64,000 nucleotides of DNA from Coptis chinensis (taxonomy: Eukaryota > Streptophyta > Magnoliopsida > Ranunculales > Ranunculaceae), in assembly GCA_015680905.1 (NCBI GenBank), contig CM027377.1, forward strand, positions 2,504,501 through 2,568,500, in the 5' to 3' direction. A model generated the notes under the pieces. It ran no database searches and was not told the DNA's origin. It worked only from the letters and a program-made list of their open reading frames with translations. The translations under genes and the position numbers were made by a program. Positions within the stretch are counted from its first letter, which is position 1. The number at the start of each line of letters is the position of its first letter. Positions 2,735 through 51,109 of the stretch are shown piece after piece.

Positions 2735-4692
2735 TGTAGAAGCACTCTAAAATGTTTTTTAATAGTGAGAAATTAATAATGAATAATTTGGGCAACCAAA
2801 ACGGACCGACACCACCACAGTTTCGTGGATATAAATATGTGTCTTTAAATAGTGAGGTGGTTGCTCACTAGCTGTCATGTTTTATGGGGTTTTGAGGTTT
2901 TCCCTTTTTCCACTCTGACAGTCTAGTAGTCTCTTAAACCCTCGCCCCCACCCAAACTCTTTCTTCACTACTTCACTTCACTTTACTTGCCTCAAAATTC
3001 ATCAGCTTTATTTTTAGTTTTGTATGTCGCGCCAAAAGCTCCTCCTTCGTTTCTCAAACAACATGTCCACTCTCTACTCCAACCACGTCGGCTTTTCCCC
3101 ATCTTTACTGCACCACTCTCACAGGTACTCCCGAAACACTTCTCATTACTTCTTGCACAAGTCACCAAAGTTATTATTAACAAAAGTGTGTATTTTTTTG
3201 TATAAATTTGTTTTAATATGAGTTAGTGTTTGGGAATAGCAGGTTGAACTTGAGTAGGTCATACTGTACTTCACTTGAAGTCCCAGAAGACAAGTGTTCT
3301 TGGCTTCAAGAAGCCCAAAATATTAAAAGGTGGAAATTGGCTATAAGAGATAAAGATGGAAGTGGTTATGACACTGAACGAGTTACTGATGCTGAATCAC
3401 CTCGTTTTCAGTTTCGATCCAGTAGTAGTAGTAGTGGAGTACCGCAGTTTTATGTGAACGATAGGGGTAGTGGGACCTTCATGCCTCATTGCTTTAATCA
3501 TGGTTCTATGAATGAGAATAATGGGGTTAAGGTACCCTTGAGACGGGATGCCCAAGTTAACGGAACCAGTGGAAATTTGGAAACGGGTGCTATTACAGTT
3601 CAACCTGAGTCTTATGTTTCAAAACAACCTGTAGTTGCACAGGTAGATTATCGCGAGCGCCTTGCTCGTATGTACAGTGATGTTCTTGTTGTCGACAGTA
3701 TATCTTCAGCTAAGAAAGTTGTTCAGCTACTTACAACAAAGTACAGGGATTTTGTTCATGCATGCGATACAGAGGTTATTTTCCATATCTGTCTATGATT
3801 TTCAGTCGTGGTAAACATGTATATGTGTGGTTCATGATTTCTTGTTTATATTTAGAATTCAGTGGTAGTTTTTTTTTTTTTTGGTTTTTCTTGACCAATG
3901 TCAGTATCTATACAGGTATCTAAGATTGATGTGAAGCAGGAGACTCCTGTTAATCATGGCGAAATAATATGTTTCAGCATCTACTCTGGATCTAAAGCAA
4001 ATTTTGGAATGGGGAAGTTATGTATCTGGGTAGATGTTCTCGATGGTGGCGGTAAGGATCTGCTAATGGAATTTGCTCCATTTTTCGAAGACTCGTCAAT
4101 TAGGAAGGTAAAAGTTTTGACGAGCTTGACCAACACACACAGAAACACAAATGTGTACCTACATAATGTGGTCATGTTATTGGTTGAGATCTTATTCTAT
4201 TTTTCATTGATGAGCATCTTTGGTATTCAGACATTCTACAAAAGAATATGTGGGGGGTCTGAATAAATTTGGAAAGAGATTTAAATTCTCTCTTTTGCTG
4301 TGGAAATGTTGGTATTCAATAATATTGGATTGAAAACGAGGTTTAGATCTCCCTCACTCCGTGTCTTGTTTGGTAGCAACGTAAACACCGATATTGTACT
4401 CCTTGATTGGAATTCATTGAATAATTATATTTCTGATCAGAAAAAAGCAAAGTAAAAGAAATTGGTGGTTCTTGTTTAGTCTGTGCTCTCACTTCTAAGT
4501 GTGCATTAACATGAAATGAGAACAGCTGATCTATTTTGCAGGTTTGGCACAACTATAGCTTTGATAGTCATGTTATAGAAAACTATGGGATTAAAGTTTC
4601 TGGTTTTTATGCCGACACAATGCATATGGCAAGGCTTTGGGATTCTTCAAGACGGGACTCAAGGTGGGTATTCCCTCAAGCACTTTACAAGC

Positions 4693-4844
4693 GACTCAAA
4701 GGTCATGAATGGGACTCCTAAAAGGGACTCAAAGGTCATAAATGAGACTCGTAAAAGAAACTCAAATGTCATTAATGAGGATCCTAAAAGGGACTCAAAT
4801 GTCATGAATGGGGTTTCTACAAGTGACTCAAAAGAACTGATTGG
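4693..4844 (+). repeat. 33-bp coding minisatellite (4 full units plus a partial)
   Basis: Units start at 4693, 4726, 4759 and 4792, with a partial at 4825. Each begins [GA]ACTCAAA and encodes an 11-residue motif like DSKVMNGTPKR. It lies inside polymerase exon 4, between exonuclease motifs II and III, where relatives have a short loop (remembered as about 11 residues). The period is a multiple of three, so expansion keeps the frame. Confidence 0.85.
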
Positions 4845-7978: not shown

Positions 7979-10449
7979 GAATCAGCCTGCTTTGGAAAAG
8001 GATAGATACAAGATCCGTCAGGCATTTGTAGCTGCTCCTGGATGCTCTCTCGTTGTTGCTGATTACGGACAGGTTACTGGATACTTAGTTACCAAATTAT
8101 GACATGTGGATCGTGTTAATTTGTTCTGATTTTGTAAGAGATATCTCATTACAGTTGGAGCTTAGAATTCTGGCTCATCTTGCAAACTGCAAGAGCATGA
8201 AGAATGCCTTCAAAGAGGGCGTGATTTCCACTCTAGGACAGCAATGAATATGTACTCATATATAATACGTGAAGCTGTAGAAAAACAAGAAGTTTTGCTT
8301 TGAGTGGCATCCCCGTCCAGTGGGGATAAACCCCTGTTCCTCTATTAAAGGTAAAATGACTGAAAAATTGTTGCACTTGTACATGAGAGCTTCAGTATAC
8401 TTTTGCGATAGGAATTAAGTACCTCCGGATAACCACTAACCAGCATGTTAATGTATGAAGACCAAGTTATTAAGTTGTTCATGTATTACTTAAAGTAGCA
8501 CAGAAGCGAAGTGACATTAACATGGTTACATGTATCGGTTTCTGACACCACTGTTTTACTTTGTGCAGACTGGCTCAACTTAACCCGTACTGATATCCAT
8601 TTTAATATGTGGCTTATTTGTCTCAAAACCAACTTTCTGTTCCAATCCTTGAAAAACCTCAAAAATTACTTGAGTCCATCTGTCCCATATTCTAATGGAG
8701 AGAACATTATACCTTCGCCTTTCTTCTATTCTTTTCATCTCAGTGTACTTAGAAGAGGAATATGATTTTTCTCGGCTCTCCTTGTTTCTCACTTCTTCCT
8801 CTTTGGGGATGAAAATATTTAACCCAAAATCTTATCAGATGTGTTTTTGTGTATCCGCCACGAGTTTTGGAGTGTCCACATGTTGAAGCGTTAATTGTGT
8901 AAAACATTTTTCGTATGGTACTATTTTTAACATTTTGAGAAAGTGCTAACTTCCACAAACAAACAAAAGAAGGCTTTAAAATGGAAACAGTATAGCATAT
9001 TTTGGAACATTATATCGTTATTTGCGTGAACCATATATGCTTTGTTTATAATACGCAAGTTCAGTTTTCTTTTATGTTTCCTGTGATTTTCTCAGGACAC
9101 CTTTGCTTCTGAAAGGAGAAAAGCCAAAATGCTCAACTTTTCCATTGCATATGGTAAGACTCCTGTTGGGCTTGCTCTCGACTGGAAGGTAATGCGATGC
9201 TTATGATGAAGTTATAGGTTTTGTGTGAGTTACAATATATTCAAAGTGGAAAAATTGTTCAAGATATATATGTTCTCTTTATCTTAGGTTTCTGTCAAGG
9301 AGGCAAGGGAAACAGTCGAACTCTGGTACCGAGATAGAAAGGAAGTTTTGAGTTGGCAAGAGGAGCGGAAGCAAGATGCTAATCGTTATGGATGTGTAAA
9401 AACACTATTAGGCCGGACACGCTCCTTTCCTTCGATGAATGGTGCTAGTAATGCTTATAGAGGACATATTGAGCGAGCTGCTATTAATACCCCTGTGCAG
9501 GTCTGACTTCTAATTTCACACAGAAGCTAAAAACATTTCTTTAGAAAAACATAGCTGTGTTTTTTGGTTATTGACATTGCCTGTATTTAATTAACAGGGC
9601 AGTGCTGCCGATGTTGCTATGTGTGCCATGCTTGAAATATCTAGAAATGCCCATTTGAAGGAGCTTGGATGGAGGCTGCTCTTGCAGGTTTCTCTCATAT
9701 GACACTTTTAGTTTTAATTTGCTACCTGTGACTTATTTGGTTTAGCTTTTCATGTGCTCAATTGCAAACATCTACTGTGGCTCTTCACTTTCTATGCACC
9801 CTCGATATCTCTCGTAGCAGTAAACCGTTCTATTTAAAATTTTAAACTCAAAGTTCTATCTTCAAAGTGTTAGACTTGGATAGTAAAGGTTTTTAATGGT
9901 ATCTAAACTCACTGGAAGCTGCACCTTGAAACTGCTTCGGTTTGCAAGATGAAAATGTTGTCTTACCAATTGCATATCCCTATTATCTAATATAAGGATA
10001 CAGTTGATTGGTTCAGTAAATCGTGAGCCTCTGTTCAATTCTAGTTAAATGACGTCTTCTGTTTGTCTTATTTACTTTATTTTCCCTTTCCTTTGACCTT
10101 TTTGCATTTCAACTTACTAAAACTAGAGCATTTGTCTGTGTTAGCACTCGACTAAATTATCTCACTCATTTTTTGTGTCTTACCATGCTTGAGCCGTTCC
10201 TACATTGTCACGAACGTCTTTGTTTCTGATTTTCCTTCCTCTTACTATGCTCATCTCTTCTCTTCTCTGCTTAATTAGTCAAAGTGTTCTTTATTGATTA
10301 ATCTATCTGTAGCTCAATAGATAGGTGACTCGGTATCCTTCTTATAAAATGTATCAAGTACATTAGCATTTATCCGTTAAAAATGAGTGGAGACATGCTT
10401 TTGTTGAAGCAGGTTCATGATGAAGTAATATTGGAAGGTCCAACGGAGT

Positions 10450-11330
10450 CAGCAGAGGTGGCGAAGGTTATAGTTGTTGATTGCATGTCCAAACCTTTTG
10501 TTGGCACCAACATTCTAAGTGTTGATCTGGCTGTAGATGCCAAGTGCGCACAAAATTGGTATGCCGCCAAGTAAACACCAGTTCTGTGATTGTATCACAA
10601 GCTCCAGTTAGATTGAAGTTACAGTCGCAGTGGTGCAGTCTGAGATCCATTTTGTACAGATGTAGCGAAGGCTATAGGTAATTGGGTGTGTATATCCCAG
10701 CCTTTTGAAGGTGCCAACAATCTCGGTGTTAATCTGTCTGTTGATGTCAAGTCTGCACAGAATTGGTACACCGCCAAGTAAACATTGTGCTCTATCACAA
10801 GCTCCACTTTTTGTGGTTCCTTCGGGCCTTTAGTACTTGCAGTGGCAGCGGTGCTGTTTAAGATCTGTTTTGTACAATGGTAGCGAAGGCTACAGTTGTG
10901 CGCATGTCAAAACGTTTGGGGTGGCACAAACATTCTCAATGTTGATCTGGTTGTCAATGGCAAACTTTTCACAGAATTGGTGTGCCACCTAGAACACAGT
11001 ATTTTGCATCACAAGGTTCAATTATGATCAAAATCCTTTTGTTGCTCCTTTGTGCTTTCTTTGGCCCGAAGGAGTTAAAGTGGAAGCTGTGTGGTTTAAG
11101 ATCTACTTTGGACAGAGGTTTAAAAGGCTAGTTGAGCGCATGGTTCGAATACCAATATGTTGATCTGGCTATGGCAACTGTGATATGACCTAGTATTCCA
11201 CCAGTAAAACAGTAAGTTCTGGTACAAGCTCTAACTTGACTGAATGTCTTCCCCTGCTCGTTTGTGGTTTCTTTGGGCCTCAGTGAGTTTCAGTGGTGCA
11301 GTTGAGATCCGTTTTCTTTGGCTGGAATTT
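10450..11330 (+). repeat. Decaying tandem array of the polymerase last exon and 3' UTR (about 4 copies)
   Basis: After the real last exon (stop at 10572-10574) the same order of landmarks recurs: GCGAAGG ... GCACAGAATTGGTRYRCCRCC ... ATCACAAGCTC ... CAGTGGTGCAGT ... GAGATCCRTTTTGTACA. The GCGAAGG landmark falls at 10461, 10665 and 10883, with a decayed version near 11122, giving steps of about 204, 218 and 239 bp. Copy 2 still ends ACCGCCAAGTAA like the real exon. Copies 3 and 4 are progressively degraded, and a partial fifth begins near 11285. None keeps an open frame through the motif C region. Confidence 0.85.
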
Positions 11331-12143
11331 ACGGCACTGCTAGGTTGCACGCTATAAAATTAGTTTTATGATCAATACGAGGTGGTACTTCGATATGATT
11401 CACAACGCCATGTGGTGTGATCTGTAAGGACAGTGGGTTAACATCTCTGTGAGGCTTGAAGCTAAAGCTGTTTAGATTGGGGATAGGGGGGAAGAGTTGT
11501 ACAGTGTACATTGACGTCCTACTGCCATTATTCAAAGCTGTATTTCCAGATAGAATGGATTTAACTCCGTACTCCTTTTCATTTGGGCCCTAGTTTTTAT
11601 TTTCTGAAAATTATGCTGTTTTCGATTTGCTGTGAAACAGATTTCTTGAATCTAAAGCTTACTGGCTACTGCTTTGGGTGGTAGTAACCTTCATCCACAA
11701 ATTCTAAGGTAGTGTGATGTCAGTAACCTTCATCCACAGCTATGTTTCGATTTCGGACTGATTTTGTGACCCAATGTAAACATTGTTCTCTACTAAGATC
11801 CATCAGTTGAGGTTCCTGAGAACATCAACCACTATGGAATCAATGTACCAATCACTCAACGAAAACGCAGATAAAAAATGGAAAATGCTCACCAGCCAAC
11901 AAGTCAACATCTAAACCAGTTTCACAAAAAGGAAAATAGTTTCATCCAAAGAGAACGAGTATACAAGTATGCAACACCAGATCCCTCTCATGGTCACTGC
12001 GCTATAGGAGGATATGAAAAAAACGATACACAACATTTTCAAACGGCATAAGTGGTGATGCAAGAGTTAAACTTGTATGATTGAGTGAGTATACAGGTTG
12101 TTTTCTAATAATGGTATTCGGTATCTCAAGATCAAACAAAATG
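11331..12143. other. Intergenic region between convergent genes
   Basis: Lies between the 3' end of the polymerase array and the presenilin stop codon. A short direct repeat, GTAACCTTCATCCACA, occurs twice around 11687-11737. No gene seen; the right part is presumably presenilin 3' UTR. Confidence 0.5.
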
Positions 12144-13442
12144 TTAGAACATCAGCAAATTTGTGGAAGTCCCAACAACGAATGGTTCCATTAACAGTCG
12201 CGTCAAGAAGTAAAACGTCACCCCCAATGTGATAGAGATGGGAAGAGCAGGTAGAGCTCGATGACACACAGACAAGAGGATAAGTGTGCACCCAAGTCCA
12301 GATATGATAGCAAGATAACATGCATAGACAGTCATGAGATCATACATAGCAGCTCTACCAACAAGAACACTATAGAAAACAAAGTCTCCAAGACCTAATT
12401 TGATACCTGGTTTCATAATGATATCCAAATCTCTACCACTATCTCCACCTCCACCACCAATGTCCCTTCGCGACCTTTCTGCCTCGTGCCCCATAACATG
12501 AGATGACCTCTCTTCAACAATTTCAGATTGCCGAGCACCTAGAGATCCAACGTCCACCACGGTTGAGCTAGGCGACACCAAAGGGATTCTCTCCTCATCT
12601 TCTCCCCCATTGTAAGCTTCAGTTTGGATACTGGAGCGATATGCATTGCTATCATTTTCTAAATTCCTTCCAACATTTTGAAGTTCGATCGAAGGCGATG
12701 CCATAAAAGCCCCGGCAACCAAAACACCCAACGATCCACGCCCTTGTTGATCACGAGCCACTGTCGGTCTGGCCTCATAAACCAAAGCAGGAAGCTCTTC
12801 GTCTCGACTCGAAGCCAACTCAACTAAAATCTTCAAAGGTCCACCAGGAGCTAAAACAGCAACTAAATCATAAACAGCCAATGCAACAAGTAACACCCAT
12901 GTAGTCCATTCAGGCAACTTAGTAAACCAAGTAGCAACAATAATCCCCAACAAAACCATATACCCTTGTCTCAAAAATATCGGAATCCCACGACTAAAAA
13001 CCGAAAGAACACCCAGTATAGTAAAATTAAACAACAGCATAAAACAAGTAATCGAGTCAACAGGTATCGAGAAATGCTGAATTATCGACAAAAATATCCC
13101 TCCACCCATGGAGCCAAGCACGAAAAATGCCGAAAAACGCATGTAGTTTTTCAAGAAATTGGTGAAATTGTAGTAGTAAAGGAGGACTAGAATGAAAGTG
13201 ACAACAGCAATGAGGACAACGAAGACGGCGGCGTTTAGTAAAGCGCCTTCGAGTTTCTGGGTAGTGGAGTCTGAAGGTGTTTCGAGGTAGACTAAATTGG
13301 CAGCAGTTCGAATTGGGGTGGAGACTGGTGTGGGAGAAGAGAGAGAGTAGACTAAGAGAACTACTAGAAACATACATATTGAGACCGGGGACATTACTCC
13401 TATGATTTCTACCCCAATTGATTCCAGAATGCTGCCTTCCAT
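12144..13442 (-). CDS. Presenilin-like intramembrane aspartyl protease, uninterrupted ORF
   Basis: 432 residues in one open frame, close to plant presenilin length. Presenilin is the catalytic subunit of the gamma-secretase complex, an endomembrane protease cleaving substrates within the bilayer. Hydrophobic spans cover about residues 20-34, 70-90, 103-121, 130-150, 158-172 and 180-198, then a long hydrophilic loop (about 205-345), then spans near 350-361, 370-392 and 398-415. Both catalytic aspartates are present: D192 in AVYDLVAVL and D353 in the GLGDF motif (GxGD). The PAL motif is at 398-400 (LPALPISI). The loop contains a Gly run (GGGGG) and Ser/Glu-rich patches. The first Met is supported by the hydrophobic segment just after it. 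Intact, with no frameshift; convergent with the polymerase gene. Confidence 0.95.
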   Translation of the reverse strand: MEGSILESIGVEIIGVMSPVSICMFLVVLLVYSLSSPTPVSTPIRTAANLVYLETPSDSTTQKLEGALLNAAVFVVLIAVVTFILVLLYYYNFTNFLKNYMRFSAFFVLGSMGGGIFLSIIQHFSIPVDSITCFMLLFNFTILGVLSVFSRGIPIFLRQGYMVLLGIIVATWFTKLPEWTTWVLLVALAVYDLVAVLAPGGPLKILVELASSRDEELPALVYEARPTVARDQQGRGSLGVLVAGAFMASPSIELQNVGRNLENDSNAYRSSIQTEAYNGGEDEERIPLVSPSSTVVDVGSLGARQSEIVEERSSHVMGHEAERSRRDIGGGGGDSGRDLDIIMKPGIKLGLGDFVFYSVLVGRAAMYDLMTVYACYLAIISGLGCTLILLSVCHRALPALPISITLGVTFYFLTRLLMEPFVVGTSTNLLMF

Positions 13443-13856
13443 TTTCTTTTGAGGTTTCCAAAGTGGTCAAGGAATAGATAAAACCATCTCAAATACCAGC
13501 TTCACACATGAGAACTCTGCTTTTAACGATGGATTTAACATTTCGTGGAATTTACCTGTTGACTGTTATTTCAGAATTTCAGTCCAAGATATTTCGAGTG
13601 TAGTTTAAGCGCTAATCGGGAGCAAGTCGCTTAGTTAACCTATAATATATATGTCACGTATAAGTGATATAACAACCTAAAACAAAATAAAGTCAAAAAC
13701 CTATATGTCTGAGTGGTGGAGTGCTAGCTGGCCTAAGAGTTTTCTTTAGTGGTTTTTCATTTTTTACAGTTTTGATTATTTTTCCTCGGTGAAGGGCGAA
13801 ACGTTTTCAATATATAAATTTGTGGGCTTTTCTTTTTTTTAGGGCTTTTTTGTGGA

Positions 13857-13888
<32 letters not shown>

Positions 13889-14459
13889 CAAAAAAACAAA
13901 AAAAAAAAATAACATGTAAACCTATTAATTGGGGCTTTTTTTTATACCGATTTACTTTAAGTCTCAGTTCTCACACATTGATACCACATTTTGGGTTTTT
14001 TTTCATCCCTTCAAGATTTTGAAAATATTCATTTTCTCATGAAATTTTATCTAAGAAAATGTATGTATTGCATCCAAGAAACGTTTGACACCAACAAAAT
14101 TTGCCATGGAAAAATTTCAATTCATTACTTTGTTTGATATTATTCATGGAAAAACAAGCAATTAACAAGGGAAAATATTTTTCATTTTCCCACGAGAAAA
14201 TTTTCTAGGGGGATTATATGGAGAAAATTTTCCTACATACTTTTAACGAATCAAATACGAGAAAGTTGGAATTTCCCGGGTAAATCATTATTTTTCCACA
14301 GGAATATAGTGGATCAAATATCCCCAATATCCTTCATGAGAAAATCGAGAATGTATATCTATTTCGTGTAGTGTATGAATTTTTTGTCAGCAGAGGAATT
14401 TCAGTTTCTGACATCCACCATCTTTTGTGAAAAGAAAAGAAGATTCAAACAATTTTGCT
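13443..14459. other. Intergenic: presenilin 5' flank, poly(A) tract, hairpin-rich AT DNA
   Basis: Contains a poly(A) run at about 13860-13908. At about 14100-14320 there are imperfect inverted AT-rich segments (GAAAATTTTC-type), possibly a degraded MITE. No gene seen. Confidence 0.5.
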
Positions 14460-31618: not shown

Positions 31619-34485
31619 TTAGGAACAACATTTAGCCGCTTGGGACCTATCTGCTGGTCTGTCAACGAGAACCATCCCTGCAGGATTTTGAGAAGGCTGG
31701 GCCCTAGGTAACCTCCTTGCTGCTTGCATGAAAACAAATATTCAAGGTCAAGACGAAAGAAAGAAAATTAAAAGTAATGGATAGAAACTGCTTGGTTCAC
31801 ATATACAAAAATATCATTAGACAGAATCGAAATCTATAGACAATGAAACAAGTATCCTTTTAAAGAATCCGCAATGATAACATACATAATTGTGTTACAT
31901 AGCTAAAATTGCACTTGTGATAACGATATGGGAACATGGTGGCAACATAGATGGGCCTCACCAAAACCAAACATTGGATATCAACTCCCTCTTCCAATCA
32001 AAAATTACAGAGAAGATTAAGATCCAGTGACACCTTTTAGCTGCCAACCTATTTGACAACCATCTAGATGGAGCACAACCCCAAATGGGACTTGCTTTCG
32101 GTCAAGAGGATCTCTTCACCATAGAGATAATCCTCAAAAAAGAGGGGGGGAACAAACCATTTTTGACATTTCTACCCTGGAAAATTACAGCTCAAAGTTT
32201 TCAATTTGCAATCATCTTTGGACAAGGTATAAAATGTACAATTAACCGATTTAGTGCAAGGAGATGGTCCGCCAAACATCAACTCAAACATTGGGGGTTC
32301 CATGAAGACACTGTCAAATAAAGTTCTAACGATACCCCACAATATGAATTGCAGCCATGCTCGTGCTTAGTAGGAAGCGTGTTAACCCATGGGAAAACCA
32401 CTATCAGAATAACAAATATTTTACAGCCAGAAAATTGTAGTGGTTTACATATTTTCAGGAGGATAAAGGACATAAAATTCAGGAGTTCTATAGATGTTCA
32501 GATCATATTCCATTCCAGCTAACAATGCTAATAAATTAATAATAATCAGAAAGAATTTTCATCAATTAGAAGAAAATGAACACACCTATTTCATAAAATA
32601 CGTCGTTGACATTAGTAGCATTTTTTGCAGAGGTCTCCATGAAGAAAAGTCCATTCTCCTCTGCATATAAGCGTGCCTCCTGCAAGGGAATTTTTTTCAG
32701 AACTGATACATACGAGCACGGCTGGGCACGCAGGATGCTTACATGGAAGAGCGATAAAAAAAAGTGCAAATCAGAAAAGGAGATTAAGTTATTTCCATAA
32801 CTTGGACGCTTGTACTAAAATTTCTTTTCCTTTTACCTAACTCAGTAACTCCTGATGAAACAGTGTATGACACAAAGTACTAGCAGACTGTGATCATATT
32901 AATGGAAGTTTCTACCTAACATTTCCCCATTACTGTCACTAGAGTCATTGGTATCCCAAAAAATACTAGAACAGACCAACCTAACCAGTATAATTATAAA
33001 CACAACTTATAGAGCTTCAACCTTAACTCCATATCTGCAACTCAAAGACCCGTGCAGCTCATTAACTAGACATGTATATACTATTGTCTTTATTAAGTAT
33101 GACCATGACATCAATTAAGCAGGGTGTGTATACTAAGGTCTGTAGGGAATGTGACCATGAAATTAACCACACAACCTAAAATACATTTAAAACCTCTTCA
33201 AAAAACAATAGTTCACTGAAAATTTTATTGTCAGTATCAGGCTTTAAGCATAGCACCATGAACATGTTCATTGAATAAAATTACACTTTTAACAAAATCA
33301 AATTGGGCACATCCTGCCAGCAACATGACACCATAGTGAAAATAAACATCTTTGTTGCATTATAAAAAAAGCCTACAAGTTGAATGGAAATCCCCGATCC
33401 GAATAAGTGTATGGATTCAAGCATTATAATTGGAGCAAATCGCCATCAGAAAATGTAATAGAAAAAGTTTACTTCGCACATCATACCCTTTACTTTTTGT
33501 CAACTTCAAAATTCACTTCCCCTACTGAGACTCGAGAGCAGTTTACCAATTTGATGTTTCCAAAAAAAAGACTTATTTATTTTTACTTGGAGCACATCAT
33601 CATAAACAGCAATCTTGTTGCCTCCTTATATGTCAACTAATCATGATGAATTCTGCATAACCTAATTATAAATCCCCTATCATCTAACCAGAAATAAACC
33701 CTCCAAAAAATTCCGTAAATTACACTCACCTCTGCTGTCACCTTCCTTTTTTCTTCCAAATCAGCTTTATTTCCCGCAAATGCCATGACCATACTAGGAT
33801 TACCTGGAACAAAATTCAAAATAAACCTGTATTCATAACAAGTACCAATAAGGAAACCATCTCAAGCATATCCCTTTAACATATGGAAAGACCGCAAACC
33901 TTGTTTCTGCAGCTCTTGCACCCACTTCTTAGCACGTGTAAACGATTCCTAAAACCCATCAAAACAATCAAATTTCAACCGAAAATCAAACTTTCACAAT
34001 AAATCTAAGGAAACAAAAAAAAAAACAAAAACCACACCGTGCTAGTTATGTCGTAAACGATGATAGCAGCCGCAGCACCTCGGTAATACATAGGAGCCAA
34101 ACTATGATACCTCTCTTGTCCAGCAGTATCCCAAATCTCAAACTTAACAGTAGCATCATTTACTGCTAATGTTTGCGAAAAGAACGCTGCCCCGATCGTG
34201 GATTCCTATAAACACCTCAAAAACCCTAATTTAAACACCTCAAAAACCCTACAACAAGTAAATTCACATGAAATTCATCTCAAATTTACCTGAAACTCAA
34301 GAAATTGACCCTTAACAAACCGCAACACTAAACTTGATTTCCCTGCTCCCATATCTCCTAATAGAACCTAAGATCGAATCCCAACAAGTACAAATTTTAA
34401 TAAAATAAATTGAAATTTAAAAAGAGTTGGGTGAAATTGAACTTACGAGCTTTGCATTGAGATTGTTGTTTCCAGTAGTTGCCAT
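31619..34485 (-). CDS. Rab5-type small GTPase, RABF2 (ARA7/RHA1) class, 7 exons
   Basis: Rab5-like GTPase of the plant endosome, controlling traffic between the prevacuolar compartment and vacuole and endosome fusion. Exons 34447-34485, 34290-34367, 34038-34205, 33900-33948, 33730-33803, 32586-32679 and 31619-31719 join in phase to 200 residues. All GTPase boxes are present: P-loop GDMGAGKSS, effector [15 protein letters not shown] with the catalytic Gln, NKAD, and [18 protein letters not shown] and the C-terminal KCCS, a geranylgeranylation signal, place it in the conventional RABF2 group rather than the N-myristoylated RABF1 (ARA6). The first exon is only 13 codons, ending after AKL just before the P-loop strand. 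No break or missing residue. Confidence 0.95.
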
Positions 34486-34869
34486 TTTTTGAAACCGAAA
34501 ATTGAAATCTTCGATTTCGAGAATATGAGGATCGGGTTGAAATTTAATTTATTCGCCTGTTGGAATCGAGAATTGAGATGGAGACTCCAAAAGAGAGAAG
34601 ACAAAGTAATTTGACGTGACGAAAGAGGAACGAAATGGTTTAAGAGTTATTATTTTTTACTGATTCTGTACATCTAGGTGTTATATAAGCGCTTACGTAA
34701 TGCGCGCCAAGTAGCATTCATTGGCAGAATACGATGAACCCGTGTTTTGGCATGTGTAGATCAACAGAGTGGTCAACTTAATTTTGATTCTAGTTTTTGG
34801 TCTGGTCAAAGTTGGACATAGAGCTGTAAATGCTAGCCCGATATACACAAAGAAAATCACAACGTCTAA

Positions 34870-35359
34870 TAGCATTTCCAATGCAGGTGGATATGGTGGG
34901 AATGTGATTTTATTCACCTTTTTATGGTTCAAAACTTTTGCCCAATGCAAAGGTGAATATCTCCGGTGACTATTTTCCCAAGTCAAAACGATGGTAAAAT
35001 CTTCAACCCCGAGATAATTAGCCGAATTAATGAACTTCGGACGGGATGTTAGATTCCATCGTCGTGTGTGTGTTTTTTTTTTTAATTTTAATTTTTTTTT
35101 TTCGGACGAGAATATTGGATTCCGCCTCGTGTGTTTTGACTTTTTTTTTTTTTTTTTTTATTTCAAACCGGATGTGTCATTCCGTCCGTGTTTTTTTCGA
35201 TTTTTACATTCAGACGGAATCCAACATCCCGTTCGAAATTATTTTTCACCTTTGTATTGGGCAGTCTCACTTTGCTTTTCACCAAAACAGTGAAAAAGAT
35301 GAAAAATACTGCCTACGTGAAGATGAATATTTGTGACTTGCATTGCATTGAGAATGCTC
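34870..35359. mobile_element. PIF/Harbinger-like non-autonomous element, copy B, with TAA target duplication
   Basis: TIRs AGCATTTCCAATGCA and TGCATTGAGAATGCT, flanked on both sides by TAA (34867-34869 and 35360-35362). The interior shares with copy A the CGGACGRGATGTT block, the ATTCCGTCCG block and TTTTCACCAAAACAGTGAAAA. About 490 bp. T-rich stretches create spurious Phe-rich ORFs. Confidence 0.85.
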
Positions 35360-46797: not shown

Positions 46798-48181
46798 GTG
46801 GCAAGACAGCACATCTCAGGAACCGTTGGATCTGATCAGGGGGTGGCCCACTCTACTCTAGATACAGATATGACCGTTGGATTTGGAAACTCTGCTAGGT
46901 CAAAAAAGACCGTTGAAAGCCATATTATTGTGGACCTAGGGTCAACATCTAACTCTGAGGTAAGAAGCATGGGCTTGGGCCTACCAGGGAAAAGTAGAAG
47001 CACAAAAGAAAATGTTGGGCCAGAGACAGATAATCCTGGTTAGAGATCATTAGTCAATTGGGAAGCTAAGATGAGCTCTAGTTATATGGACCTGGATCTA
47101 TCTAACAGAGATGGGCCGAATGCACAAAAGCGAGTCTTGGTCTATGTGGATAAGAACTAGCTGGAACTCATCTTCATTAACCCTAACTCTACAGTAATCT
47201 CATCGGGAAATGATAAAGCCGCATATCTTCAGCCCTCTCTCTCCTCATATCTCATCACGCCTATTTCTAATGATAACATCCCTAATCCTGAGCCTCACCA
47301 CACCTCCAAACATATCAATTCTGCCACCTTATGAATCTAACCCAGTTTATAGATTTCACAGTTTACCTACACGTGGAAGGGGCTTTAAAACTTTAGTTTC
47401 TCGAGGTCCAAAAAGGAAAATGGTTAGATCTGGTCTAGGCTTAAGTAAAGCTCAAAATTTCTCTGGATCTCCATTAGAGAAAAAAATAAAAGAGTGTGAT
47501 CTGGTGATAAAAGAAACTAATATGGACAACAATGATGGAGATGTTTGGGTTAGAAGGAGTATAAAAGTTGCTGAACACAGATCAAAGAAAGCAAAGCAAC
47601 TAGCAAACGATATGAGAGCTAGAGGAGAAGGCCATTTGCTTATTCCTAACGAGGCAGATGTCATTCCCATCTCTAGTGATTCAGCAGAGTCTGTAGCTTC
47701 TTTGGGGTCTTATGATCGGGCTATGTCTAGTGAAGTTTCTGCAAATGATCCAGCAAGATTGGAAGACTCTTCCTCTGACTCGGGAGATTCGGATGTTCTG
47801 GACATGATGGGGCCAGCCTTGCCACTAGTTGTGATGGCCCCAAATGAGTTTGTAGTGCCACTAGCTATGGTAAACCCAAATGAACAATCTTTGATCCCGT
47901 TTGTGGAGCAAAATCATCAGGAATTAGTAGGATATGAAGCTAACATAGAAGGGCTTGGTGAACAACCAGAGCCATTTGCTTCGGACTTATCATCAGTGGT
48001 GCGTCGTCTTCAGTTCCAAAACATCCAAGGTAATACAGGGGAATCGTCTAGAGTTCAACAAGGTAACCTTTCTGGGTATGAGGAATGTTTGAATGAAGAT
48101 TTGGGAAACAGTGGGGGCCTGTTGGTCTCTCTCCCAGGGTTCGCGGTGGTTGTCCCCAAACAACTACCTCTACGTCAATGA
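46798..48181 (+). pseudogene. LINE ORF1, C-terminal part, broken
   Basis: Same frame as the preceding ORF as far as 47043, then a shift into the frame open from 47210 to 48181. The sequence is Ser/Glu-rich and low in motifs, with basic patches (RGPKRKM, RSKKAKQ) and an acidic Ser/Asp stretch (SSSDSGDSD), like the variable tail of plant LINE ORF1. Its TGA overlaps the ORF2 ATG. Confidence 0.7.
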
Positions 48182-51109
48182 TACACGCCTAGAATTGCCT
48201 GGGAATAAGTTCCTCCACGACAATTCAAAATCTAAAGAACATATTAGGTAGGCATGATCCAGATATAGTGTCTCTCTGAAACAAAGGTTAGTAGTGATAG
48301 GATTAGTAGGATTAGTAAAATGGTAAGTACAGTGGTTGCTTCAGTGTCCCAGCAGCTATGGGTCTCAATGATGGGCTTGATGTCCTATGGAAAGAGGGAG
48401 TGGACCTGGAGATCTTGGGAGCAACTAGAAACCAAGCGACAAGTAAACTTTCCAATTATCATTGCTCAGAATTATGGTATTTCTCTTTTGTGTATGGTGA
48501 ACCTATAGCAAGTAACAGACACAAAGTTTGGAAGGAATTACGTGATGTAGCTCCTATGATCCTTGGCCCTTGGTGCCTTTTTGGGGATTTTAATGTTATA
48601 GTATCCCTAGATAAAAAAATAGGGGAGTATCTTTGATAAAAGTGTGCTTGAGTTCAATGATTTGATTAATGACTTTGGCCTTATTGACCTGGGATATAAA
48701 GGCCCAAAATATACTTGGAGCAATAAAAAAGCCCCGAATGGTCATATCATTGAAAGATTAGATAGAGGTATGACAACTGATGCCTGGCTCTTAGCCTTTC
48801 CTCGTATGCAAGTAACTAACTTAGTAAATGCTACCTCTGACCATCTTTCTATTATGATTAATCTGAATAAAAAAAATGATAATAGGAATGAGCATGATAA
48901 ACCTTTTAAATTTTATAATATGTGGTTCTCTGATACTACATGTATGCCTATTATAGATACTGTCTGGAACTCTATTATGCATGATATGTCTAATGTTAAT
49001 GTGGTTCTTAAGCTTAAAGTCACTCAACAACACTTGTCCATCTGAAATAAAAAAAGTGTTTGGAAATATCTTCACTAATATCAACAAATTGCAAAAAGAT
49101 TTGGAAAACATTTTGGTAAAACCTTTTTCCCCAACCAATTATGAGAGAGCTAAGGTACTCAAATCTGAGTTGTTTGATTGGTTGGCAAAAGAGGAGAGTT
49201 TTTGGAAACAAAAATCCACTACACACTGGTTGAAAGATGGAGGGAGAAACACTAGATTCTTCCATCTCTCCACCATTTATAGAAGAAGGAAAAATAAGAT
49301 TGAGAAGCTCAAAAAAAATAATGGGAGTTGGAGTTTGGGGAGAGCTGAAGTGGTTGCTAACATTAGTTCTTACTTTAAAGATATCTTCAGTTCTGAACAT
49401 GAAGCTATTGATTGTGGTGTGTATACTTCAAAGATTTATAAGAAGTTGAGGTTCATCCTAGATTGTTTAAAGTTGAAGAGATTGGGAGTTTAGGGAAGAA
49501 GGTAGACTCTTAGTTTAGGACTTGGCTAGTTTAGTTGTGAATGAAAACATTGAAAAGCAAGTTGTTAAAGATTGAAATGACTCAAAATATTGAAAGCAAA
49601 TAATTGAATGAAAGATTAAAACAAGAAGAACAAGGAAATATTGATTAATTGAAATAAACAAGATAACATAACAAGAAAATAAAGAACAATAAAGTAAAAC
49701 TTGAATTGAAAAACAAGACTAGCTAGAAATGTAAAGCAAACCAAATGGTTTGGATCCTAATACAATGGATGAGTTCTCTCTCATTTGCTTTATGATTATA
49801 TACCCCTCCTTTTGCTAATTACATATTTGCCCTCATCCATTCTAAACTAGACACCTCACCCCTTTTACTTTTACTTTTGCTTTTGCTTTTGCTTTATGGG
49901 TGCCTTTTTGACCAAAATAGGTTTAGGGATAAGTCTTCATAATTTGAGATAAAGGCCACCATTTTTGGTCTTCTGATTTGAGTCCTTTGACTGTTGACTT
50001 TGACCGGTTGACTTGATTTTTTCAGCACTTTTCTATAGCAGCTACTAGTCTTCATAATAAGCGTGATTAATATTCTTTTTGGTGCTAAAACGCAGCTTTT
50101 ATGATAAGTGGTCTGAAATACTTCTTAACTTGAAAAATGTAATAAAAGGTATGAGTTGTCTTTTCGTTAAGTGTAAGAGGGACGGTAATACATTAATAAA
50201 GGGGTAATAAAACACATATTTGGGAGCTGATCAGAACACCCTCAGGATAATGAGAGTATTCTCAACTTGTTTCAGCCTTGTATTACTGAGAGGGAGAATG
50301 ATATCCTTATTGTTGTGCCTACAAATGATGATATTTGGAGGGTGGTTAGGAAGATGTGAAGCCTAAAGGCCCCTAGGCCAGATGGTTTCCAAGGATGCTT
50401 CGACCAAAACACTTAGGACATTATTGGCAATAGTATCTCTGCCTTTGTGAAAGACTTTTTCATCTCTGGGGTGTTTAACCCTACTTTTAATGAAACTTTT
50501 ATTACTTTAATCCTTAAAGTTAGTAATTCTAAGGTTGTGGCTAATTTTAAACCTATTAGCTTATGCAATTTATGCTATAAGATTATTTCTAAAATATTAT
50601 CCAATAGGCTTAAGTGTTACCTGAATAAGATTATCTCTCCCTTTCAAGGGGATTTCATAAAAGGGAGAAACATATGAGATAATAATGGCTTGGCTTGTGA
50701 GCTGTTTCATAATATGAAAAACATGAAATAAAAAAGTCATGGTTGGGCTACCTTAAAAATGGACATGACTAAGGCCTATGACAAGGTTGAGTGGTTCTTT
50801 TTGGATAATATTTTGGATAGACTTGGTTTTAATAACAAATGGAGAACTCTTATTCATCAATGCTTATCCACTTTGTCTTTCCGAGTTTTGCTTAATGGTT
50901 ATCCTTTAAACAAGTTTACTCCTGAGAGAGGCCTCAGACAAGGGGATCCTCTTTCCCTATACTTTTTTATTATAGTGTCGTCTAAGGTCTTATCTAGGAT
51001 GATTGCAAAAGCTGAGATGGAAGAAAAAGTCCATGGGATTAAAATTAGGAGAGCTGCTCCTTCTATTACCCATATCCTCTATACAGATGACTTGATCCTA
51101 TTCACCTGA
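48178..51109 (+). pseudogene. LINE ORF2: endonuclease and reverse transcriptase, broken
   Basis: Starts at ATG 48178 and hits TAG four codons later. Endonuclease blocks: RHDPDIVSL, GPWCLFGDFNVI, YTWSNKK and ATSDHLSI. Linker: HWLKDGGRNTRFFH. Reverse transcriptase: FKPISLCNLCYKIISKIL, SPFQGDFIKGRNI, KAYDKVEW, GLRQGDPLSLYFF and the catalytic YTDDLILF. The solo LTR at 49400-50233 splits it: removing the LTR and one copy of GAACA gives continuous reading from DIFSSEH into PQDNESILNLFQPC. Several stops remain. Confidence 0.85.
49400..50233. mobile_element. Solo LTR (834 bp) with 5-bp target duplication GAACA, inserted in LINE ORF2
   Basis: Begins TGAAGCTATT and ends GAGCTGATCA (TG/CA). GAACA directly precedes (49395-49399) and directly follows (50234-50238) it. 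The interior is non-coding and AT-rich, with a TATA-like stretch near 49794-49803 and a (TTTTGC)n tract near 49865-49895. Excising it restores the LINE frame. No internal retrotransposon domain is present, so this is the footprint of LTR-LTR recombination. Confidence 0.85.

What the first reader, a model, noticed from the sequence alone, without database searches (positions are those of the whole stretch)
10450..11330. Tandem, progressively decaying copies of the last exon behind the organellar DNA polymerase gene
The terminal exon (polymerase motif C to stop) and its 3' UTR are followed by at least three more copies in the same orientation, spaced about 204, 218 and 239 bp. Copy 2 still ends with the CCGCCAAGTAA stop context; copies 3 and 4 are more eroded with distance. 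This could be a dead local duplication, a source of alternative 3' ends, or an array expanding by unequal crossing-over. I know of no description of it.
Basis: seen in the sequence. Interest (0 to 1): 0.7.

Follow-up and report, generated by a model that had tools for sequence, protein, structure and literature searches.

The report
Decayed tandem copies of gene's end
Behind a plant gene for an organelle DNA-copying enzyme lie three old, rotting copies of the gene's own last coding piece and trailer; they seem to evolve like junk DNA, and a jumping gene once picked up and moved part of the array.

Summary
The array is real: four head-to-tail units at about 10453-11335, starts 204, about 218 and about 238 bp apart; all six unit pairs score above every one of 300 shuffles. 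One correction: the unit starts 42 nt inside the last exon, so copies 2-4 lack polymerase motif C and the exon's splice acceptor.

The window lies in a 935.6-Mb genome. A paralogous polymerase gene on C9 has a single last exon and UTR, and its 3' region resumes in the window only after unit 4: the array lies inside the gene's ancestral 3' region. In a near-duplicate 166 kb away, units 2-4 differ at the intron rate (10/638 versus 48/2919). Copy 2's own changes show no codon-position bias; copies 3 and 4 carry stops. Pieces on C4 and C8 sit in a TIR element with 8-bp target duplications and a high-copy end: a hAT-like Pack-TYPE capture.

Best reading: one old seed duplication, amplification to four, neutral decay. 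Nothing found supports current expansion or an alternative C-terminus. RNA data and plant relatives were not available. New member of a known kind.

The parts
10413..10574 (+). last coding exon of the organellar-type family A DNA polymerase (VHDEV...NWYAAK, stop TAA)
   Evidence: Pfam DNA_pol_A E 2.7e-6, profile positions 333-380, below the curated cut-off for so short a piece; no indel against the C9 paralog
10455..10658 (+). unit 1 (c1): end of the real exon from codon GAG plus proximal 3' UTR; its UTR lacks a block of about 45 nt that c3, c4 and the C9 paralog keep and c2 keeps in part
10659..10872 (+). unit 2 (c2): decayed copy, frame still open to TAA at 10779-10781
   Evidence: 78% coding-like and 71% UTR-like identity to c1; 5 synonymous and 12 nonsynonymous own changes; open frame; no Pfam match
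10873..11110 (+). unit 3 (c3): decayed copy, frame disrupted, stop in place of the last codon
11111..11335 (+). unit 4 (c4): most decayed copy, internal deletions and stop; its UTR end joins the ancestral 3' tail
11322..11543 (+). ancestral 3' UTR / 3' flank, homologous to sequence directly after the single exon+UTR of the C9 paralog
   Evidence: local alignment score 64 vs maximum 35 in 200 shuffles
11757..11817 (+). possible displaced fragment resembling unit 2
   Evidence: score 46 vs maximum 33 in 200 shuffles, one of four units tested
12144..13466 (-). open frame of the neighbouring presenilin gene, tail to tail with the polymerase gene
   Evidence: Pfam Presenilin E 2.2e-124
10128..11265 (+). 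stretch of this locus (or its near-duplicate) that was captured by a TIR transposon and now lies in pieces on C4 and C8

Best explanation
This is an old intragenic partial tandem duplication. One event copied about 205 bp, from inside the last exon through the proximal 3' UTR, and put the copy directly behind the original, inside the gene's own 3' region (shown: unit boundaries, the single-unit state of the C9 paralog, and its 3' tail resuming after unit 4). Homologous misalignment between the units then raised the number to four (inferred from the same breakpoint at all three junctions). Because unit 1 keeps the reading frame and the stop codon, the rest became 3' UTR or flank and has decayed neutrally (supported: intron-like divergence, no codon-position bias in unit 2, stops in units 3 and 4). 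Later a non-autonomous hAT-like TIR element copied this end of the gene, array included, and inserted it elsewhere (shown: TIR-like ends, 8-bp target duplications, high-copy end sequence; the hAT assignment is inferred from the 8-bp duplication).
For: Six of six unit pairs above shuffles. C9 paralog with one unit only and resumed tail homology. Array present in the near-duplicate C1b and, with four units, in C8a. Divergence between window and C1b: units 2-4 10/638 (1.57%), introns 48/2919 (1.64%), Fisher p=1.0. c2-specific changes per codon position 6/38, 5/33, 6/24 where c1 and C9 agree, against C9-specific 1/33, 3/31, 7/25 where c1 and c2 agree, and c1-specific 0/32, 2/30, 4/22 where C9 and c2 agree. 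Short branches between units in the tree. Element ends and target duplications; 35 of 41 listed matches of a flank-plus-capture query lie only in the element end.
Against: The array-versus-exon contrast is weak: 7/1029 with approximate exon limits, p=0.13, and 26 substitutions over 2,493 window bases (about 1.0%) in the ten better-placed exon stretches, not tested. The c1 UTR (0/84) and the tail (2/265) differ less than introns. c2 keeps an open frame and the stop context in the window and in C1b. No RNA evidence and no related plant species could be examined. The order of array birth and C1/C9 gene split is unresolved (branch support 84/79), so loss of the array from C9 is possible. Single-seed origin rests on shared junctions alone.
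Confidence: 0.85

Rival explanations
1. Unit 2 is a working alternative C-terminus, reached by removing an intron inside the last exon (exitron-like: intron 10438-10659), which would swap the end of the polymerase for EDVAKAIGN...NWYTAK.
For: This splice keeps motif C and the frame; the c2 frame is open in the window and in C1b, where the peptide is identical; a duplicated terminal exon with part of the 3' UTR is used by alternative splicing in oyster AOX (PMC5589949, passages).
Against: c2-specific changes show no codon-position bias and 12 of 17 are nonsynonymous; the donor (AAG|GTCCAA) is weak by recalled consensus, no splice model was run; very many other GT-AG pairs also give open products, so openness is cheap; splicing from the previous exon straight to c2 would lose motif C; the captured copies of c2 are no test, being transposon cargo.
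Confidence: 0.04
2. The array has a regulatory role as a long 3' UTR (about 970 nt from stop to the end of the conserved tail), for example lowering the mRNA through nonsense-mediated decay or offering several poly(A) sites.
For: It lies between the stop codon and the conserved 3' tail.
Against: Units 2-4 change at the intron rate; poly(A) sites are unknown; the effect of long 3' UTRs is recalled, not tested.
Confidence: 0.08
3. The array came in from elsewhere, with the transposon, instead of being made here.
For: Array pieces lie in a TIR element on C4 and C8.
Against: The captured piece begins in the intron before the last exon and ends inside unit 4 (C8) or unit 3 (C4), with presenilin-side fragments behind it, so the element copied this locus or its near-duplicate; the gene and its ancestral tail continue on both sides of the array here; none of five exact end motifs of the element occurs in the window.
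Confidence: 0.03

Closest known systems
[quoted passage not shown] passages seen, part of the abstract among them)
   Same: Terminal coding exon plus part of the 3' UTR duplicated head to tail inside one gene; copies 63.5-65.9% similar there, 67-78% to unit 1 in the coding-like part here
   Different: In the oyster both copies keep peptide coding and are used through an alternative 3' splice site; here three extra copies lack motif C and the exon's acceptor and look neutral
Fragmented / tandem plant pseudogenes (PMC7935947; passages seen)
   Same: Partial gene copies near the parent, high turnover at neutral sites
   Different: Here the copies sit within the parent's own 3' region and form a four-unit array
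Pack-TYPE transposons, Pack-hAT (PMC8903248; passages seen)
   Same: Non-autonomous TIR element carrying gene pieces, 8-nt target duplication reported for hAT
   Different: Here the cargo is a pre-existing array of gene ends; no autonomous partner was sought

Membership tests
intragenic partial tandem duplication / decayed gene-fragment array | several head-to-tail copies of part of a gene beside the original | tested here: met
intragenic partial tandem duplication / decayed gene-fragment array | copies evolve without coding constraint | tested here: met
   small numbers, and the direct array-exon contrast is not significant (p=0.13)
intragenic partial tandem duplication / decayed gene-fragment array | single-copy state in a relative or paralog | tested here: met
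   C9 paralog; one paralog only, no other species available
duplicated alternative terminal exon (oyster AOX type) | each copy encodes the functional C-terminus | tested here: not met
   motif C absent from units 2-4; stops in c3 and c4; c2 alone is open
duplicated alternative terminal exon (oyster AOX type) | transcripts that end in the different copies | not testable with these tools
   no RNA data
actively homogenised tandem repeat (satellite/minisatellite) | units kept near-identical, copy number varying | tested here: not met
   units 58-78% identical; four units in window, C1b and C8a; one probable contraction in C8b
Pack-TYPE hAT element (for the dispersed copies) | TIRs and exact 8-bp target duplication | tested here: met
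Pack-TYPE hAT element (for the dispersed copies) | moved by a hAT transposase in trans | not tested
   no search for an autonomous partner was made

The most novel reading that the evidence does not exclude
Unit 2 is occasionally spliced in by an exitron-like event and gives a second polymerase C-terminus, the other units being failed versions: a stepwise record of making an alternative last exon out of a gene's own 3' UTR.
Probability: 0.04. Interest if true: 0.6.

Novelty: new member of a known kind. Interest (0 to 1): 0.25.

Why it matters
It is a clean example, polarised by a paralog, of how a gene's tail can be multiplied inside its own 3' region without harming the protein, because the first stop codon shields the reading frame. 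It also warns annotators: the extra 'exons' here and the transposon-borne pieces on C4 and C8 look like polymerase gene ends but most likely are not.

Tried and rejected
Transposon origin of the array was considered when pieces turned up on C4 and C8; rejected because the captured piece includes intron, array and presenilin-side fragments of this locus. Further units upstream: in 9701-10400 no unit scores above shuffles. The unit tree was used to ask whether the array is older than the C1/C9 split; it does not resolve it. Left out of that tree and its alignment: the unit-1 pieces of C8b and of the left half of C4. Listing exitron-like open products was uninformative because very many GT-AG pairs give them. 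The last exon against PDB sequences gave only weak matches, to bacterial DNA polymerase I (48 with E up to 1, best E 0.28). Seven paper searches (listings only, apart from passages of three papers) showed no description of this array; most subscription papers are not in that library. No other plant genome was available, so no relatives were searched; the viral, prokaryote, phage, plasmid and E. coli collections were not scanned.

Full report
OBSERVATION. The sequence at 10413-10574 is the last exon of a family A DNA polymerase gene: the three last exons match Pfam DNA_pol_A at profile positions 232-302, 302-333 and 333-380, the latter two below the curated cut-off for such short pieces. The label 'organellar' is from recall, as no plant reference was available. 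From codon GAG at 10455 the exon end and proximal 3' UTR (unit c1) are followed by three similar units, c2 10659-10872, c3 10873-11110 and c4 11111-11335. All six unit pairs score above all 300 dinucleotide shuffles, c1-c4 and c2-c4 narrowly, and the repeat finder sees the same families. Tandem Repeats Finder does not report the array. The unit starts 42 nt inside the exon, so motif C (VHDE, name recalled) and the splice acceptor are not copied.

CONTEXT IN THE GENOME. The window is C1:2504501-2568500 of a 935.6-Mb assembly with 116 contigs. A search with 10410-11340 gave 8 matches from 8 candidates: the window; C1:2348502 (95%, called C1b); C8:82520467 (90%, C8a); C4:54128837 and 54141669; C8:82709841 and 82713062 (C8b); and C9:72115230 (85%, query 1-171 only). 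A search with the Pfam family gave 12 matches: exons at the window (2), C1b (3), C9 (3) and a further locus on C3 (4).

THE PARALOG WITHOUT THE ARRAY. On C9 the gene has one last exon and UTR; in 5.2 kb around it the units match that one place, apart from hits of 11 and 14 bp. Its UTR contains the block that c1 has lost and that c3 and c4 keep whole and c2 in part, so the loss in c1 is derived. After this single UTR the C9 sequence matches the window again from 11322 to 11543 (score 64, maximum of 200 shuffles 35). The extra units therefore sit inside the ancestral 3' region. All three unit junctions have the same breakpoint (AGATCY..TTTG.ACA), which fits one seed event and later homologous gain. 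By eye no long microhomology is visible at it.

AGE AND DECAY. Coding-like identity to c1 is 78, 75 and 67% for c2, c3 and c4, UTR-like 71, 69 and 63%; c1 to C9 is 83% and 69%. In the UTR-like part the units differ from each other (58-71% identity) about as much as from C9 (57-70%), so the array is about as old as the C1/C9 split. A 17-row tree has short inner branches between units (6 of 14 inner branches well supported; the branch separating the c1-c3 rows from C9 and c4 at 84/79), so the order is open. Where c1 and C9 agree, c2 has own changes at 6/38, 5/33 and 6/24 sites of codon positions 1, 2 and 3 (5 synonymous, 12 nonsynonymous; random expectation 20% synonymous). Where c1 and c2 agree, C9 has own changes at 1/33, 3/31 and 7/25; c1 on the same footing 0/32, 2/30 and 4/22. 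c3 and c4 each carry a stop. Between window and C1b, units 2-4 differ at 10 of 638 sites, introns at 48 of 2919 (p=1.0), exons with approximate limits at 7 of 1029 (array against exon p=0.13), the c1 UTR at 0 of 84 and the tail at 2 of 265. In ten better-placed exon stretches the two copies differ by 26 substitutions over 2,493 window bases (sum). Units 2-4 thus behave like introns, but the exon contrast is weak at this low divergence.

PIECES ON C4 AND C8. Pieces of 10128-11265 lie on C4 and C8, followed by short stretches that also occur on the presenilin side of the window (13518-13597 and 13962-14003 for C4, 13962-14001 for C8). Of 41 listed matches of a query holding this end plus the captured part, 35 lie wholly within query 324-548, starting at 324-349; the element end as placed is query 341 and the captured part begins at 574 (903 candidates, 40 scored, so a lower bound). 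This is how a Pack-TYPE element looks; 8 nt is the hAT duplication length reported in PMC8903248 (passage). The C8a piece starts at 10475 and holds four units, the fourth cut at 11265. The C4 piece is split by a 12,434-bp LTR retrotransposon with LTRs of about 525 bp and 5-bp duplication GGCAC. In C8b a c1/c3 hybrid, now split by a 2,847-bp insert with an 8-bp repeat, suggests one contraction by recombination between units; the repeat is partly shared by c1 and c3, so this is only probable.

CAN THE COPIES BE USED? Splicing from the preceding exon into any unit would lose motif C. An intron inside the last exon (10438-10659) would put c2 in frame behind motif C, but the same listing shows very many open GT-AG combinations. 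The c2 peptide is open and identical in the window and C1b, yet its changes since c1 show no codon constraint, and it matches no Pfam family. No RNA data were available.

CLOSEST KNOWN. [quoted passage not shown] A plant pseudogene survey describes many fragmented and tandem gene copies (PMC7935947, passages). The present case is the same kind of event with an apparently neutral outcome and four units. Paper searches (listings) showed no description of this array.

CAVEAT ON THE GENE COPY. As assembled, the window's polymerase copy carries a 1-nt insertion near 4654 and a cluster of six indels without substitutions at about 8220-8355 relative to both C1b and C9 (whose stretch stops at 8345, shows five of them plus an edge gap). 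The Pfam search agrees: it lists the corresponding exon for C1b and C9 but not for the window. In the ten stretches C1b shows, against C9, only gaps that sum to multiples of three within a stretch, or gaps at the edge of the stretch chosen. This may be a broken copy or local assembly error. The duplicate is collinear where checked: window 2803-21922 matches, and of three 2-kb probes expected inside the duplicate two match (window 33183-35149 and 48076-50064) and one (C1:2368000) does not; two further probes were expected outside and do not match (matches over 200 bp only). It is either a large segmental duplication or a second haplotype in the scaffold.

VERDICT. Real, old, and most likely neutral; a good teaching example, not a new kind of system.

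Noticed in passing
window 4654 and 8220-8355: The polymerase copy in the window has a 1-nt insertion and a cluster of six indels with no substitutions relative to both C1b and C9; C1b keeps the frame. Broken copy or assembly error.
   Followed up: partly
window 2803-50064 versus C1:2340754-2399999: Much of the window is present again 166 kb away at 95-99% identity in the same orientation: segmental duplication or unpurged haplotype.
   Followed up: partly
window 4689-4832: A 33-bp tandem repeat (4.4 copies) lies inside a polymerase exon and is in frame, giving repeats of 11 residues (DSKVMNGTPKR-like).
   Followed up: no
L004, L005, L007, L008, L013-L017 (C4 and C8): A high-copy TIR element family with 8-bp target duplications carries pieces of the polymerase end and of the presenilin-side region in two insertions.
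   Followed up: partly
C8b (L016-L017): A probable c1/c3 hybrid unit, split by a 2,847-bp insert flanked by an 8-bp repeat, suggests contraction of the array by recombination between units.
   Followed up: partly
window 11757-11817: A 61-bp stretch resembles unit 2 more than shuffles do; possibly a displaced fragment of the array.
   Followed up: partly
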